DNA of 64,000 bases. Source: Robertmurraya dakarensis. GTDB lineage: Bacteria; Bacillota; Bacilli; Bacillales; Cytobacillaceae. The translations under genes were made by a program, and so were the position numbers. This document shows, piece by piece, positions 1 to 61,721 of the stretch (position 1 is the stretch's first letter; every line of letters starts with the position of its first letter). The notes under the pieces were generated by a model, which worked only from the letters and a program-made list of their open reading frames with translations, searched no databases and was not told where the DNA came from. Location of the stretch: the NCBI RefSeq assembly GCF_900156875.1, contig NZ_LT707409.1, forward strand, positions 1,099,789-1,163,788. Reading direction: 5' to 3'.

Positions 1-810
1 GACCGCTTAAGAGTTGAACAAGAGTTGGGGCTCGATCAGCCCCTCGTTGTTCAATATTTAAGCTGGTTAGGGCGCACGCTTGAAGGAGATTTTGGCAGGT
101 CGATTATTAAGCAGCTGGAAGTAGGAACCTTACTATTTGATGCGATGAAAAATACGTTCATTCTAGCGATTGGAGCTGCTTTTTTCTCCTTTATCTTAAG
201 CTTAATAATCGGGGTATACAGTGCCTATCATCCGAAATCATGGATTGCTTCATTTGGAAATATGATTGGCCTGACCGGTGTAAGTATTCCGAATTTCTGG
301 GCCGCTCTTCTGTTAATTGGTCTATTCTCCGTAATCTTAGGATGGCTCCCCTCTACAGGAATGTCTGGTGTGGGGGGTGGAGGAGGCAGCTTTGATATGC
401 TGAAACATATGATTTTGCCGTCCATTGCTGCAGGCATGACTACACTCGGTGTTATGACGAGAATGATTCGGAGTACTGTGATCGATTTGCTGCAAAAGGA
501 TTTTGTGATTACTCTCAAGGCCAAAGGAGCCAGTTCTTACATTATATTGATGCATGTCTTAAAAAACTGCACACCGACGATTCTAACCGTTGCAGGTTTG
601 CAGTTTGGCTATCTAATTGGAGGTTCCGTTCTTGTTGAAACCGTCTTTTCATGGCCGGGTGTCGGACAGTTAATTTATCAGGCGATTAGTCAACGAGACT
701 TCCCGATTATCCAAGCAGGTGTACTGATGGTGTCCATTGTGTTTGTACTGCTGAATTTAATGGTTGATTTATTACATGCTGTCATTGATCCAAGGGTAAG
801 ACACGCATAG
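1..810 (+). CDS. DppB/OppB-type ABC transporter permease (5' end cut by window)
   Basis: Inner-membrane permease of a peptide/nickel-type (binding-protein-dependent) ABC importer. The frame is open to base 1 and already reads DRLRVEQELGLDQP, the conserved region after the first membrane segment of DppB, so the real start lies upstream. About five hydrophobic segments follow. The EAA-loop region is near residues 165-190 of the visible part (LKAKGASSYIILMHVLKN), and the family C-terminus ends in DPRVRHA. It is the first visible gene of a tight operon: the next permease starts 13 bases on, then an ATPase. The solute-binding protein and the DppD-type ATPase are presumably left of the window. The substrate cannot be read from the sequence. 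The downstream hydrolases suggest a small amide or ureide rather than a peptide, which is inference. Confidence 0.93.
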   Translation, partial: DRLRVEQELGLDQPLVVQYLSWLGRTLEGDFGRSIIKQLEVGTLLFDAMKNTFILAIGAAFFSFILSLIIGVYSAYHPKSWIASFGNMIGLTGVSIPNFWAALLLIGLFSVILGWLPSTGMSGVGGGGGSFDMLKHMILPSIAAGMTTLGVMTRMIRSTVIDLLQKDFVITLKAKGASSYIILMHVLKNCTPTILTVAGLQFGYLIGGSVLVETVFSWPGVGQLIYQAISQRDFPIIQAGVLMVSIVFVLLNLMVDLLHAVIDPRVRHA

Positions 811-54968: not shown

Positions 54969-56378
54969 TCAGCCTATTTTTGCTAGTGTTTGTAGTATCG
55001 TCTGTTCTTCTTCGTTTGTAACGCATCTTAAGTCAAGAATGACTTCATCTTTTTGAATGCGAACGACAATCGCAGTGTCCTCTTCCACCCTTAGTTTTCT
55101 TGCCAAATTCTCTGCTGATAAGTCTTTATGCTTTAGAACAGCCACATATGTAGGGAGTTCCACCTCAGGCATAGTCCCACCTCCTACCTGACTCGTGCTT
55201 TCAGCAATAGCAATGTCATATTGATTGCTAACCTTCGATAATTCAGCCGCAAATTTCTCCGTTCTTTCTTTCATTTCTTCTTTCGTGGTAAGCATGTCTC
55301 CTACAACTGGGATATTCCTAATACCAGATTCCCCTTTTACATACTCAATCAACGTACCCTCCAATGCGGCCAGCGTCATTTTATCAACACGGACAACTCG
55401 CGCCAATTGATTTTTCTTTAATCGGTCAATCAGCGGCTTTTTCCCAACAATAATCCCTGCCTGTGGACCGCCCAGCAGTTTATCTCCACTAAAAGAAACA
55501 ATGTCAACACCCTTCATTAAGACATCCCCGACCACAGGTTCATTTCCAATGCCATGCTTACTGTAATCATAAAGGGCACCGCTGCCCAAATCCTCATAAA
55601 AAACCAGATTTTCATGAGCACTGGATAGATCAGCCAATTCCTCCGAACCGACTGACTTCGTAAAACCAATTACTTTGAAATTACTTGTGTGGACTTTCAT
55701 CACCATTCCGGTATTTTCGGAAATAGCTCGTTCATAATCATAAAGATGGGTTTTATTTGTAGTACCAATCTCAACAAGCTTTGCTCCGCTTTCCTCCATA
55801 ATAGATGAAATCCGAAAAGACCCGCCTATTTCAACAAGCTCTCCTCTAGAGACAATGACCTCTTTATCATAAGCTAACTCTCGCAGTATTAAATAAACCG
55901 CAGCGGCATTATTGTTCACGACCATTGCCGCCTCAGCTCCGGTAATCTCTTTAATAAGAGATTCTACATGTGAATGACGGGAGCCGCGCTCCCCTTCTTG
56001 GAGCTTATATTCTAAATTAGAATAAGACTCTGCCGTTTCCACCACATGTTTTATGGCCATTTTACTCATCCTGGCCCGCCCAAGGTTTGTATGTAAAATC
56101 GTGCCGGTGCCGTTTATTACTTTTTTTAATGTAAATTGAAATTGATGTTTAAGCCTCTCTTTAATGTTTTCAAAAAGATAGGAAAGAAATTCTTCATCTC
56201 CTGGAGAAGGTCCAGTATATTGTGCATGTAGTATATCTTCACGAATTTCATCAATCACCGCTTTAACATGCGCCGTCAGTTTCAATTGATCCAATCCATA
56301 TTTATATATAAGCGTGCTATACCTTTCATCCCTTTGCAGCTCATGCACAGGGGGAATATAGCGAAGCATCTGTTTCAT
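54969..56378 (-). CDS. selA: L-seryl-tRNA(Sec) selenium transferase
   Basis: PLP enzyme of 469 aa that turns seryl-tRNA(Sec) into selenocysteinyl-tRNA(Sec) using selenophosphate. Motifs: INGTGTILHTNLGRARMS (about 90-107), NLEYKLQEGERGSRHSH, NNNAAAVYLIL, and the PLP-Lys region SFSGDKLLGGPQAGIIVG. ATG 56378 is behind GGAGGATTTTTA. In most bacteria selA is followed by selB; here it stands alone between sspP and cotM, so selB must be elsewhere. Its presence shows that the TGA-containing genes in this window can be read as selenoproteins. Confidence 0.96.
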   Translation of the reverse strand: MKQMLRYIPPVHELQRDERYSTLIYKYGLDQLKLTAHVKAVIDEIREDILHAQYTGPSPGDEEFLSYLFENIKERLKHQFQFTLKKVINGTGTILHTNLGRARMSKMAIKHVVETAESYSNLEYKLQEGERGSRHSHVESLIKEITGAEAAMVVNNNAAAVYLILRELAYDKEVIVSRGELVEIGGSFRISSIMEESGAKLVEIGTTNKTHLYDYERAISENTGMVMKVHTSNFKVIGFTKSVGSEELADLSSAHENLVFYEDLGSGALYDYSKHGIGNEPVVGDVLMKGVDIVSFSGDKLLGGPQAGIIVGKKPLIDRLKKNQLARVVRVDKMTLAALEGTLIEYVKGESGIRNIPVVGDMLTTKEEMKERTEKFAAELSKVSNQYDIAIAESTSQVGGGTMPEVELPTYVAVLKHKDLSAENLARKLRVEEDTAIVVRIQKDEVILDLRCVTNEEEQTILQTLAKIG

Positions 56379-58097: not shown

Positions 58098-58337
58098 CTA
58101 TAAGGCTTCCATCTTTTCGATGATTTCCTTATTTTTTGGAAAAAGCCCAGTATCATCCTTGGAATAAATCTTGTCTCCATTCACTGTGACTTCAAATATC
58201 CCTCCAGTACCTGGTGTCAAGATCATATTCTTAATGTCGGTACGAAAATGGGTAAACAAATCCTCCGCGAGACTCGCGGCCTTTGGTGCATAGTTTCATT
58301 GCATACAGAATTCTACTGTTACCTCATAAGCTTTCAT
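58098..58337 (-). CDS. SelW/Rdx-family selenoprotein (CxxU, in-frame TGA = Sec14)
   Basis: A 79-codon gene interrupted by TGA at codon 14 (58296-58298). It reads MKAYEVTVEFCMQ-U-NYAPKAASLAEDL, then DIKNMILTPGTGGIFEVTVNGDKIYSK and DTGLFPKNKEIIEKM. The CMQU motif sits at the Rdx-family redox site (CxxU or CxxC), and TPGTGGIFEVxVNG matches the family's second conserved strand. This is the SelW-like fold of small thioredoxin-like selenoproteins, probably redox-active. ATG 58337 lies 8 bases behind AAGGAGG; ATG 58341 is out of frame. It is divergent from selD. Missed by normal gene calling because of the TGA. Confidence 0.88.
58265..58279 (-). promoter_or_regulatory. Candidate bacterial SECIS of the SelW-like gene
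   Basis: On the minus strand, 17-31 nt after the TGA, CCGCGA pairs perfectly with TCGCGG around loop GTC. The loop begins with the GU that SelB recognises in known bacterial SECIS elements, at a typical distance from the UGA. Confidence 0.68.
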
Positions 58338-58380
58338 TCATGGTGCCTCCTTCGAAAGTTGTCTTCAGTTATACAAGGTT

Positions 58381-58408
58381 ATTGTAGTATACATTCAATT
58401 CTTTTCAA
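58381..58408 (-). promoter_or_regulatory. Promoter of the SelW-like gene
   Basis: On the minus strand TTGAAA (58403-58408) and TACAAT (58381-58386) are separated by 16 bases, 44 bases before the ATG. The divergent selD promoter may use TATACT at 58451-58456, for which I see no good -35. Confidence 0.55.
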
Positions 58409-58477
58409 AGTAACTAGCATGTTAGAAATGATTTTCATTTCTTTTATGTGTATACTGATTTATGGAGGTGAGCTCTG

Positions 58478-59530
58478 TTGAGTGAACATGAAAAAATTCG
58501 ACTTACATCGTTATCAACAAAAGCTGGCTGAGGCTGTAAAATTGGTCCAGAGGACTTAACTCAGGTTCTGAGTTTATTACCAAAACATGACCCTGTTCCC
58601 GAATTGCTTGTAGGCCATGAAACATCTGATGACGGCGGAGTCTATCAATTAACCGATACAATTGCACTTGTACAAACACTAGATTTCTTCACACCGATTG
58701 TGGATGATCCATATATGTTTGGGCAGATCGCTGCCGCAAATGCACTAAGTGACGTTTTTGCGATGGGCGGCACACCAAAAACGGTGATGAATATAGTTGC
58801 GTATCCTGTTAAAAAGCTTGGAGCTGAAATTTTAGCAGAAATTTTGAAGGGTGCAGGAGATAAAGTACACGAAGCCGGGGCTGTTACCATTGGCGGACAT
58901 TCCATAGACGATCAAGAACCAAAGTTTGGTTTATCAGTTACTGGCGTAGTCCACCCAGATAAGGTTTGGAAAAATGTTGGGGCTAGACCTGGAGATGTAT
59001 TAGTTTTAACTAAACCGATTGGCGTTGGAATTATGACTACAGGAATTAAGCGTCAAGCCGTGACAGCAGAACAGGAAAAAGTGGTTACTGAAGTAATGGC
59101 TGCGTTAAATCGTAAAGCTGCTGAAGCACTCCACAACTATTCTCCGAATGCCGTTACGGATATTACTGGTTTTGGATTGTTAGGCCACGGCAGTGAAATG
59201 GCTAGAGGCAGTAATGTAAGCTTTGAAATTTCCTACGAAGATGTACCGATGTTAGATGGAACAAATGAATTAGCCAAGAACGGTGTAGTTCCAGGCGGCT
59301 CAAAATCAAACCACAAATGGTTGGAAAACGACATCAATTACGAAGATATCAGCCCTGAAGAGCAACTTATCCTATGTGACGCCGTTACATCAGGCGGTTT
59401 GTTCGTATCTCTTTCTGAGCAAGAAGCGAAGCAATATGTTGCTGACCTTCATCAGCAAGGAATTAAAGATGCTGCAATCATCGGAAAAGTTACAGAGAAA
59501 AGAGACAAGCTTATTTTTGTAAAAAGGTAA
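58478..59530 (+). CDS. selD: Selenophosphate synthetase (Sec-containing SelD)
   Basis: Enzyme of 350 aa that makes selenophosphate from selenide and ATP. The start is TTG 58478, 7 bases behind GGAGGTG. Codon 18 is TGA (58529-58531): LSTKAG-U-GCKIGPEDL, exactly where SelD has its catalytic Cys or Sec before the essential Lys (U-G-C-K). Then HETSDDGGVYQLTDT, VGAxxxLSDVFAMGG-type DQIAAANALSDVFAMGG (here GQIAAANALSDVFAMGG), and TDITGFGLLGHGSEM follow. An ORF from 58604 alone would lack the active site. Selenoprotein SelD is known in Sec-decoding bacteria and makes Sec synthesis self-dependent. It lies divergent to the SelW-like gene. Confidence 0.96.
58558..58574 (+). promoter_or_regulatory. Candidate bacterial SECIS of selD
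   Basis: A 7-bp perfect stem (AACTCAG / CTGAGTT) with loop GTT lies 27-43 nt after the TGA. The loop starts with GU, and the spacing is within the range of known bacterial elements though at its far end. Confidence 0.62.
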
Positions 59531-59606: not shown

Positions 59607-60521
59607 TTACTTCATTCCATATAAACTAACTGCAATTTTCGCTCCTACTACAGCGTTATTCTTTACCAATTCAATATTGGCGTCGAGACTTTTCCCTTCA
59701 GTCAGTTCTTTTACTTTTGCTAGTAAAAACGGAGTAGTATCCTTGCCGTGAATGTGATTCTCCTCTGCCTCTTTAAGAGCTGATTGAATGACACCAGTAA
59801 TCATACTTTCTTCCATCGCATGTTCTTCTGGAATAGGATTAGCAATGACAGCTCCGCCTTTTAAATTCAAATCCCATTTTGCTTTTAACGTTGCAGCAAC
59901 AGTTTCTGGGTTATCAGCACGGAAGTTAACGTCAAATTCACTTGTTCTCGTATAGAATGCTGGAAGTACATCTGTTCCATAGCCAATTAGCGGTACACCC
60001 TTTGTTTCCAAATACTCCATTGTCAGCCCTAAATCTAGAATAGACTTCGCACCAGCACAAATGACGGCAACATTAGTATTTGCTAACTCCTCTAGATCAG
60101 CGGAAATATCCATTGTTGTTTCAGCCCCGCGGTGAACACCGCCGATTCCGCCTGTTACGAAGATTCGAATATCTGCAAGATCTGCACAAATCATTGTAGC
60201 AGCGACAGTTGTTGCACCATTTTTCTTTGTAGCGAGTAAATAAGGAATATCTCTGCGGGAAGCTTTTGCAACCTCGGTATTTTTCCCAAGCATTTCAAGC
60301 TCCTCATCTGATAAGCCGATCTTTATTTTCCCTTCTAAAATCGCAATCGTAGCTGGTACTGCCCCATTGTCGCGAATAATTTGTTCGACTTCGCGGGCAG
60401 TTTTAACATTTTGCGGGTACGGCATTCCATGTGAAATGATCGTAGATTCCAATGCCACAATCGGTTTTCCTTGTTCCTTCGCTGCACGTACTTCTTCTGA
60501 TAATGTGATATATTCTTTCAT
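59607..60521 (-). CDS. psuG: Pseudouridine-5'-phosphate glycosidase
   Basis: Enzyme of 304 aa that splits pseudouridine 5'-phosphate to uracil and ribose 5-phosphate. Family motifs: [17 protein letters not shown] (catalytic Glu region, about 23-39), [33 protein letters not shown], and [12 protein letters not shown]. Its ATG overlaps the psuK stop by 4 bases with AATTATC as spacer, so the two are translationally coupled. Together they salvage pseudouridine from RNA turnover. Confidence 0.95.
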
Positions 60522-61627
60522 GATAATTCCTCCATGTCTTTTTGTAATTGTGTTGCTGTTAAATCCTCTCGAACGGTAAATGGCGAATGAAGTGTTTTAT
60601 AGGCATTGACGATCCCTGCTTTGCCGATTTCCTTTAAAGCGTTCCCTTCCAGCCAAGAAAAAATCACCCCTGAACTGAAAGCATCACCCGCACCAGTTAC
60701 ATCAATAATTTGATCGGACTTAATCGCAGGAATATGAAAAACACCTTCTTCTTTATTTCCGATCATCACACCGTCTGCTCCCTTTGTAATGACAACATTG
60801 GATATACCAAGTGACAGCCATTTCTCAACAAATTCTCTCCACTCAGACTCGGTTTTTATTTCTTGTTGAAAAAACGTTTCTGATTCGTCCCGGTTTGTAA
60901 TTAACCAAGTCACACCCGTTAAGTCATCAGGAAGCCTAGCCATTTTCGGTGATGAAACAGGGATAAAAATCAATGGTCTATCGTGTTTTTTGGCAAAATA
61001 ACAAAGAGTTTGCAGCGCCTCTTTTGGGCAATTCAAATCAGCAATGATGCATTTAGCATGTTTCAATAAGCTTTCATGGCTTAGTATAAGTTCTGGTGTA
61101 ATATACTCGTACACTTCCATATCTGCTAAAGCAATAACCATGTCACCATTCTCATCCAGTACAGCTGAATAAGATCCTGTTGAATGGTCCGGACTTGGAA
61201 TAACCTTTTCAAGATTCATGTATAAGGAAGAGGAATCCTCTATGAATTTCCATTCCGAATCTGCGCCGCATTTTGTTAAAAGTGTCACATCCATCCCAAG
61301 GCGCCCGAGGTTCTCAGCAATATTTCGTGCGACCCCTCCTACACTTTGTGAAGATTTGACAGGATTAGATGTTCCAAGCATTGTCTTTTCTTTTAAGAAA
61401 AATTTTCGGTCAACATTCGCCCCGCCAATACAGACAATTTGTTCAGAATCATTCAGGATATAGGCTCGTCCAACGATCAAGCCTTTTTTCGTCAAACCAG
61501 AAATCATATTCGCAATCGATGGGCGCGACAAACCCAATATTTCTGCTAGTTCTTGCTGAGATATGAATGGATTTTCACGAATAAGATTGATCAGAGTCGT
61601 TTCCTTTCCTGACAACTTCTCAGGCAC
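60518..61627 (-). CDS. psuK: Pseudouridine kinase with N-terminal HTH (PfkB family)
   Basis: Carbohydrate-kinase-like enzyme of 369 aa. Residues 1-60 form a winged HTH ([34 protein letters not shown]), which is also seen in YeiC/PsuK-type fusions. The PfkB domain follows: [28 protein letters not shown], and the ATP/catalytic motif [20 protein letters not shown] 61627 is 6 bases behind GAGGGGT; the in-frame TTG 61642 precedes that site. The HTH suggests the kinase may regulate its own operon. It phosphorylates pseudouridine for PsuG. Confidence 0.92.
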
Positions 61628-61721
61628 AGTTTCACCCCTCAAACTTTTGTTTAATTTTAAACTTATGTTTATATCTTACTTCGTTTTATTTAGTTTGTCC
61701 ATCTAATATGTTTTTCTACAA

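What the first reader, a model, noticed from the sequence alone, without database searches (positions are those of the whole stretch)
58098..59530. A selenoprotein pair: CxxU SelW-like gene divergent from a Sec-containing selD
The minus-strand frame at 58098-58337 is open end to end except for one TGA, at the exact redox position of a SelW/Rdx protein (C-M-Q-TGA). The plus-strand selD frame is open from TTG 58478 except for one TGA at its catalytic position (K-A-G-TGA-G-C-K). Both have good ribosome-binding sites and downstream GU-loop hairpins. Normal gene calling drops the first and truncates the second by 42 codons. If SelD needs Sec, Sec synthesis is partly self-dependent.
Basis: partly seen in the sequence, partly recalled or inferred. 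Interest (0 to 1): 0.93.

Follow-up and report, generated by a model that had tools for sequence, protein, structure and literature searches.

The report
Back-to-back selenoprotein genes, two-hairpin selD signal
A Bacillus-group bacterium carries two back-to-back genes, each broken by a single UGA codon that is likely read as the amino acid selenocysteine; one of them encodes, by family match, the enzyme that activates selenium for making selenocysteine, so that pathway would depend on its own product, and its UGA is followed by two predicted RNA hairpins instead of the usual one.

Summary
The minus frame at 58098-58337 matches Rdx/SelW (TGA at CxxU); the plus frame at 58478-59530 matches SelD (TGA at the first Cys of GCGCK in solved SelD 3u0o). 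The genome has selA (in the window), selB and tRNA-Sec. The TGA is kept in the 80 best-matching named relatives' selD, 74 of which have SelW divergently upstream. In 397 genomes of the order, SelW occurs in 165 of 180 with Sec-SelD, 0 of 39 with Cys-SelD and 0 of 178 without SelD. Such selenoproteins are a known kind.

The less ordinary part is the RNA signal in selD. Two tandem hairpins follow the UGA; both exceed what codon choice explains in Sec-selD (151 and 158 of 158 in the best tenth of synonymous versions) but not in Cys-selD (4 and 5 of 33). Usually only the second has the G[G/U] loop. The ten class-level relatives without the second hairpin all have GG in the first loop. I read this as a relocated SECIS whose old hairpin is retained, probably folding up the extra spacer. 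That mechanism is inferred; no recoding was measured.

The parts
58098..58337 (-). SelW/Rdx-like selenoprotein gene, 79 aa with Sec at residue 14 (CMQU)
   Evidence: Pfam Rdx E 2.5e-21, TIGR02174 CXXU_selWTH above cut-off; relatives with the same TGA
58296..58298 (-). TGA of SelW, likely Sec codon
   Evidence: conserved in relatives
58265..58279 (-). SECIS-like hairpin of SelW: 6 bp, loop GUC at 58271-58273, nt 20-34 from the UGA
   Evidence: 99.6% of cells paired over 94 sequences, pair 21-33 covaries; 6/6 pairs in 92 of 94 against 6% under synonymous codons
58478..59530 (+). selD, selenophosphate synthetase, 350 aa, TTG start, Sec at residue 18
   Evidence: TIGR00476 E 7e-122; TGA aligned with the first Cys of GCGCK in 3u0o_A
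58529..58531 (+). TGA of selD, likely Sec codon
   Evidence: TGA in 80 of 80 named relatives kept
58544..58556 (+). selD hairpin 1 (nt 16-28 from the UGA), loop AGA, no GG/GU at nt 21-22; reads as a retired SECIS hairpin
   Evidence: Sec-linked energy beyond synonymous expectation; GG loop here in relatives without hairpin 2
58558..58574 (+). selD hairpin 2 (nt 30-46), 7 bp, loop GUU at 58565-58567; predicted SelB-binding SECIS
   Evidence: 4 of its 7 pairs show two-sided changes; 158 of 158 in the best tenth of synonymous versions, Cys-selD 5 of 33
54969..56378 (-). selA, L-seryl-tRNA(Sec) selenium transferase
   Evidence: TIGR00474 E 1.4e-169, Pfam SelA; near selD in 74 of 80 relatives

Best explanation
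The two frames match the SelW/Rdx and SelD families and each is interrupted by one UGA that is likely decoded as selenocysteine, directed by a GU-loop hairpin just downstream that is predicted to bind SelB. Shown by sequence: family membership, position of the TGA at the redox/catalytic residue, conservation of the TGA, and presence of selA, selB, tRNA-Sec and selU. Inferred: SelD makes selenophosphate with Sec18, SelA uses it to make Sec-tRNA, and SelB brings it to the UGA of SelW, of two formate dehydrogenases and of selD itself. With no second SelD found in the genome, selenophosphate synthesis would be a closed loop that must inherit some active SelD. In selD the signal is a tandem: hairpin 1 (nt 16-28) sits where ten class-level relatives have a single hairpin with a GG loop, but here its loop lacks that motif, while hairpin 2 (GU at nt 37-38) carries one. 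I propose, as inference, that the SECIS moved to hairpin 2 and that hairpin 1 stays because folding its 13 nt brings the GU of hairpin 2 to an effective nt 24-25. That is close to nt 23-24 in both fdh genes and nt 26-27 in selW of the same genome.
For: Families. Machinery: tRNA-SeC with anticodon tca, selB 361.9 bits over cut-off, selA, selU. TGA conservation: selD in 80 of the 80 named loci kept; 180 Sec and 39 Cys among 219 SelD-bearing genomes of 397 in the order. SelW divergent upstream in 74 of 80. SelW (E to 1e-8) in 165 of 180 Sec-SelD genomes, 0 of 39 Cys-SelD, 0 of 178 without SelD at E to 1e-40. Hairpins: covariation, synonymous-codon nulls. Natural controls: L036 has SelW with TGT and only 4 of 6 hairpin pairs while its selD keeps TGA and the hairpin sequence; Cys-selD has no excess of either hairpin. 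Relocation: 10 of 10 class-level selD without hairpin 2 have GG at nt 21-22, against 8 of 200 with hairpin 2.
Against: No expression, Se-labelling or peptide data. Single-sequence folds of the window's hairpins are not better than dinucleotide shuffles (z +0.9 to -0.9). The window's own lowest-energy selD folds keep only one hairpin each (72 nt: hairpin 2; 47 nt: hairpin 1), only the 47-nt centroid having both, and for many relatives the lowest-energy fold is a longer hairpin. In SelW only one pair varies on both sides, no more than in shuffles (498 of 500 reach it), and the covariation score (0.143) is equalled by one slid version, though no shuffle reached it or the paired percentage. By a lenient count (4 bp or more) 26 of 34 Cys-selD also show something at hairpin 1 and 1 of 34 at hairpin 2, so only the comparison with synonymous versions separates hairpin 1. 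That null used the family's codon usage for all Sec sequences, and the sequences are related, not independent. The Cys-selD form one clade, so the Sec/Cys contrast may be one evolutionary event. The spacer-folding step is untested, and hairpin 2 (33 nt from the UGA) already lies inside the published 16-37 nt range, so it may need no help.
Confidence: 0.9

Rival explanations
1. Both UGAs are ordinary stops or sequencing errors in decaying genes, and SelD is made from a downstream start.
For: Table 11 gives a 308-aa SelD ORF from TTG 58604 and no SelW ORF of 60 aa or more.
Against: The same TGA is kept in the 80 named selD loci and in all but one of the listed family SelW rows (list cut). Frames downstream stay intact. 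The 308-aa form lacks the GCGCK loop.
Confidence: 0.02
2. UGA is read as another amino acid (for example Trp) by readthrough, not as Sec.
For: Of the six public SelW sequences I read (of 11 found), four carry W at the TGA.
Against: Those four are predictions on short contigs (918-1611 bases), and W at a CxxU site makes no redox sense. Neighbouring genes (selA, the DinB-like gene, the gene at 60518-61642) end in TGA. tRNA-SeC and selB are present, and hairpins follow the TGA and are weaker or absent with Cys.
Confidence: 0.02
3. Hairpin 1 of selD is only a leftover or serves something else (mRNA stability, ribosome pausing, extra SelB contact), and hairpin 2 alone is the SECIS.
For: Hairpin 2 fits the published single-hairpin model by itself: 33-nt spacing, G-first loop.
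Against: Hairpin 1 is held in 151 of 158 Sec-selD beyond codon choice and not in Cys-selD. It is formed by other bases in L184, L204, L212 and in L273, L274, L276 and L278-L282, which is more than a leftover would show.
Confidence: 0.4

Closest known systems
Sec-containing SelD of bacteria (38 in the table of PMC1794560, passages seen)
   Same: Sec form of SelD, here with TGA at the first Cys of GCGCK, in a genome with Sec machinery
   Different: Two conserved hairpins after the UGA instead of one; found here as the common form across an order of Bacilli
Bacterial SelW-like / Rdx selenoproteins (10 in the same table)
   Same: CxxU, Rdx family by sequence, about 80 aa
   Different: Divergent from selD in 74 of 80 relatives and near selA; tied to the Sec form of SelD over 397 genomes
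Bacterial SECIS model (bSECIS; PMC13188914, passages seen)
   Same: SelW hairpin and selD hairpin 2 each meet its stem, loop-G and 16-37 nt spacing terms
   Different: selD adds a second, upstream hairpin that lacks the G[G/U] loop in most members
E. coli fdhF SECIS (numbering G23 U24 recalled, not from a call)
   Same: GU in a small apical loop; both fdh genes of this genome have GU at nt 23-24
   Different: selD has GU at nt 37-38

Membership tests
Sec-decoding trait | selB | tested here: met
   TIGR00475 361.9 bits against cut-off 242.25, 637-aa frame
Sec-decoding trait | tRNA-Sec with UCA anticodon | tested here: met
   RF01852 57.1 bits over cut-off 47; ARAGORN tRNA-SeC (tca)
Sec-decoding trait | selA and selD | tested here: met
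   TIGR00474, TIGR00476
SelD (selenide, water dikinase) | family profile above cut-off and Cys/Sec in the N-terminal loop | tested here: met
   406.5 bits against 125; U18 aligned with first Cys of GCGCK in 3u0o_A
SelD (selenide, water dikinase) | selenophosphate synthesis | not testable with these tools
   no assay
SelW/Rdx | Rdx profile and CxxC/U | tested here: met
   PF10262 E 2.5e-21; TIGR02174 64.1 bits against 34.2; CMQU
SelTWH_Campy equivalog NF041051 | score above 88 bits | tested here: not met
   77.8 bits: not filed under this equivalog
Bacterial SECIS | stem 4-16 bp, loop 3-9 nt with G in first two positions, spacing 16-37 nt | tested here: met
   SelW: 6 bp, GUC, 22 nt; selD hairpin 2: 7 bp, GUU, 33 nt (model)
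Bacterial SECIS | minimum free energy at or below -7.5 kcal/mol | tested here: inconclusive
   SelW 49-nt stretch -10.8 with the hairpin: met. selD 47-nt stretch -11.0, but that fold opens hairpin 2; the centroid (-10.3) has both hairpins
Bacterial SECIS | binding by SelB | not testable with these tools
   no binding assay

The most novel reading that the evidence does not exclude
In Bacilli the Sec codon of selD is governed by a composite, two-hairpin SECIS produced by relocation. The hairpin nearer the UGA lost its SelB motif but is kept as a spacer-folding element, while a second hairpin, its loop 16 nt further on, took over SelB binding. Relatives with only the first hairpin, with both, and with the second plus a silent first would show the steps of a SECIS changing place inside one gene.
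Probability: 0.45. Interest if true: 0.72.

Novelty: new variant of a known kind. Interest (0 to 1): 0.55.

Why it matters
A sole SelD that itself needs Sec makes the Sec pathway depend on its own product, which can be tested in a cultured Bacillus relative. The strict link of SelW to the Sec form of SelD over 397 genomes suggests that SelW is a main client or partner of the pathway. The two-hairpin signal, with apparent intermediates in living relatives, offers a natural series for asking how SelB finds a UGA at a distance and how a SECIS can move within a coding sequence, which the published single-hairpin model does not describe.

Tried and rejected
Rejected: UGA as stop, pseudogene or Trp (see rivals). 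Rejected: hairpin 1 as the present SECIS of this selD, because its loop (AGA) lacks GG/GU at nt 21-22 and hairpin 2 covaries more. Considered and set aside: a long alternative fold pairing about nt 5-13 with nt 38-46, which is the lowest-energy fold in many relatives. Where the stem changed to CAG-GUU-CUG in L056, L064, L074 and L078 the printed folds do not show it and keep hairpin 2; the window's own 47-48-nt fold shows a different alternative that opens hairpin 2 (read by eye). So the choice of fold rests on covariation and codon nulls, not on energies.

Led nowhere: Rfam scan of the window at gathering threshold, 0 matches. The protein search with SelW gave 11 hits, of which I read six: four carry W at the TGA, one starts one residue before the W, one lacks the site. 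Paper searches for Neobacillus selenoproteins, for two stem-loops with SECIS and for tandem hairpins with fdhF and SelB gave no papers; bacterial SECIS spacing with selD gave only the 2026 review. One search listed four papers; I saw passages of two (PMC1794560, PMC13188914) and only the listing of the others. So 'two-hairpin SECIS not in print' rests in an open-access library, not on full reading.

Weak points kept: the selD tree has few columns (125) and 69 of 129 inner branches are open, so the number of SECIS switches (7 by count; at least 2 forced for the single-hairpin group) is unsure. For that tree I thinned the family and order rows by locus number (132 of 244 sequences, those being 210 Sec and 34 Cys). 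Alignment A1 used 71 of 81 selD stretches: ten were left out by hand, some near-duplicates, two at other offsets. The order and class stretches were picked by me from listed rows to spread over families, not at random. Two class loci (L308, L327) had their site placed in a second script after the first misplaced or missed it.

Full report
Observation. The minus frame 58337-58098 reads MKAYEVTVEFCMQUNYAPKAAS... to TAG with one TGA, and the plus frame 58478-59530 reads LSEHEKIRLTSLSTKAGUGCKIGPEDL... to TAA with one TGA. The first matches Pfam Rdx (E 2.5e-21) and TIGR02174 CXXU_selWTH above cut-off, but does not reach the cut-off of the narrower NF041051 (77.8 of 88 bits); the second matches TIGR00476 selD (406.5 bits, cut-off 125). 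In the alignment to 3u0o_A (recalled as E. coli SelD) the TGA stands at the first Cys of GCGCK, and the SelW TGA stands at the second Cys of the CxxC of solved Rdx proteins such as 3dex and 2fa8. Standard calling misses SelW at 60 aa or more and shortens SelD by 42 codons.

Machinery. selA lies at 54969-56378 in the window. The genome (5.48 Mb, 11 contigs) has one tRNA-Sec over the Rfam cut-off, which ARAGORN names SeC (tca), selB over its cut-off in an unbroken 637-aa frame, and selU/ybbB. selB and tRNA-Sec lie on contig C10, selA/selW/selD on C11. Only one SelD match was found. Two more TGA-bearing genes match formate dehydrogenase alpha (TIGR01591, 800 bits) and formate dehydrogenase-N alpha (TIGR01553, 1059 bits; its 3' end lies beyond the fetched locus), with the TGA before HAPSVAG and HSSTVAG. 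So the locus belongs to a selenoproteome of at least four. A systematic search for further families was not made.

Conservation. Of 526 relatives found among named genomes the best 80 were kept: all 80 selD have TGA. Their names are mostly Neobacillus, Mesobacillus, Robertmurraya, Cytobacillus and Bacillus. SelW was found in 74 of 80, each on the opposite strand upstream: in 71 its start (or first matched residue) is 123-185 bp from the selD start, in three (L056, L058, L082) about 1.8 kb. selA was found in 74 of 80. Because each locus ends 3 kb upstream or less, misses are not proof of absence. In the genus, 6 of 7 genomes have SelD, 5 with one TGA and one cut at a contig end. In the family, 160 of 193 genomes have SelW; every listed row but one (G038) has one TGA, and the list was cut. 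In the order, SelD (E to 1e-40) was found in 219 of 397 genomes, 180 Sec and 39 Cys (G221 is counted as Sec because its locus L222 has the TGA although the match began later). SelW (E to 1e-8) was found in 165 genomes: 165 of the 180 with Sec-SelD, 0 of the 39 with Cys-SelD and 0 of the 178 without SelD. All listed SelW rows there have a TGA, one (G406) with an extra TAA; that list was cut too.

SelW signal. Nt 20-34 from the UGA fold as 6 bp closed by GUC in the window. Over 94 distinct sequences 99.6% of cells pair and pair 21-33 changes as CG/UA/UG. The paired percentage and the covariation score were reached by 0 of 500 shuffles, but the count of pairs with two-sided change (1) was no higher than in shuffles and one slid version equals the score. 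Six of six pairs form in 92 of 94, against 6% (at most 14%) in 200 synonymous resamplings. In one genome (G038, locus L036) the TGA is TGT and 4 of 6 pairs form, while selD next door keeps its TGA and hairpin sequence: a single natural control.

selD signal. Two hairpins can follow the UGA: hairpin 1, nt 16-28, and hairpin 2, nt 30-46 with loop GUN at nt 37-39. In 71 of 81 family sequences five of twelve pairs show two-sided changes, and 98.6% of cells pair; slid versions reach at most 54%. The 16-codon window with the lowest third-position diversity in the whole gene begins at codon 19. Of 216 scored columns the two with no third-position change lie in the two stems: GAC in 81 of 81, and TTG in all 72 rows that use the TT box. 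Elsewhere in selD 24% of Asp codons are GAC (404 of 1683). In 137 Sec-selD (81 family, 56 order) a stem of 6 bp or more at hairpin 2 forms in 137, against 1.5% expected from synonymous codons, and 4 bp or more at hairpin 1 in 137, against 36%. Against each sequence's own synonymous versions, 158 unique Sec-selD average -5.6 kcal/mol for hairpin 1 (expected -1.0; 151 of 158 in the best tenth) and -9.2 for hairpin 2 (expected -1.3; 158 of 158). For 33 unique Cys-selD the figures are -2.4 against -2.0 (4 of 33) and -1.2 against -1.0 (5 of 33). The Sec null used codon usage from the family's selD, the Cys null that of the Cys genes. In distant Sec-selD hairpin 1 is formed by other bases and amino acids, for example UCGC...GCGA in L273, L274, L276 and L278-L282. 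Against this: energies of single sequences do not favour the tandem. The window's 72-nt fold keeps hairpin 2 only, its 47-nt fold hairpin 1 only, and neither beats shuffles clearly.

Relocation. Adding 40 class-level Sec-selD (two had their site placed in a second script, L308 and L327), 210 Sec sequences fall out as 192 with hairpin 2 and a hairpin 1 without G[G/U] at nt 21-22; 8 with hairpin 2 and GG at nt 21-22; and 10 without hairpin 2, all ten with GG at nt 21-22 in a hairpin 1 of 5-7 bp. Of the 8, two (L308, L323) have only a weak, displaced match for hairpin 2 and are better read as single-hairpin, and in two (L223, L302) hairpin 1 folds best in a shifted register; L309, L311 and L314, and perhaps L211, look like true double forms. 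One of 34 Cys-selD also passes the lenient hairpin 2 test and 26 of 34 pass the lenient hairpin 1 test. On a poorly resolved tree without the signal's codons the Cys form is one clade and the presence of hairpin 2 changes 7 times among Sec sequences. The direction of the move is not settled by that tree.

Mechanism. Family and pathway knowledge: SelD makes selenophosphate, SelA makes Sec-tRNA, SelB binds the SECIS and delivers it (review passages). The GU positions in this genome, counted from the UGA, are nt 23-24 (both fdh), 26-27 (selW) and 37-38 (selD). If hairpin 1 (13 nt) folds out, the selD value becomes 24-25. I infer that hairpin 1 is kept for this. The published range of 16-37 nt covers 33 nt without it, so the point is open.

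What is known. A 2006 study (PMC1794560; passages read) lists 38 SelD and 10 SelW-like among 285 bacterial selenoproteins and three selenoproteins in three families for Bacillales (families not named in what I saw), and already argues that Sec-SelD could help maintain the trait. The 2026 review (PMC13188914; passages) gives the single-hairpin model; PMC4561486 (passages) calls bSECIS a simple stem-loop; PMC12013277 (passages) notes atypical SECIS; PMC5029168 (passages) does not mention SelW. I found no description of a two-hairpin SECIS.

Verdict. The finding is right and of a known kind; the composite selD signal is the part worth a specialist's time.

Noticed in passing
L140:1486-3552 minus and L144:1-2415 minus (G000 contig C11, near 1564144 and 3471889): Two further selenoprotein genes of this genome, FdhA and a formate dehydrogenase-N type alpha subunit, each with one active-site TGA and a GGUCU stretch between complementary arms (UUGCC/GGCA); in L144 that hairpin is not the lowest-energy fold.
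   Followed up: partly
L036 (genome G038): SelW with TGT (Cys) in place of TGA and a partly broken hairpin, beside an intact Sec-selD: apparently a recent Sec-to-Cys change in one gene of the pair.
   Followed up: partly
L283, L324-L330 (genomes G513, G595, G663, G884 and others): A divergent SelD (about 39-46% identity) with TGA mostly in an AG-U-A or SG-U-A context; in some genomes (G513, G595, G663, G884, G590) present as a second copy besides the usual Sec-SelD.
   Followed up: no
genomes G069, G059, G170: Family members whose SelD is only 62-63% identical and lies far from or on another contig than SelW, as if selD had been replaced by a foreign copy.
   Followed up: no
L021 (genome G003): Same genus, Sec-selD present but no SelW match in the 1.5 kb beside it; two weaker SelW matches in the genome (best E 2.9e-13) suggest a broken or distant copy.
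   Followed up: no
P0003-P0006: In a 5.8-billion protein set the four SelW sequences I read that span the TGA carry W there, so gene calls on short contigs apparently used a Trp code: a gap in public annotation.
   Followed up: partly
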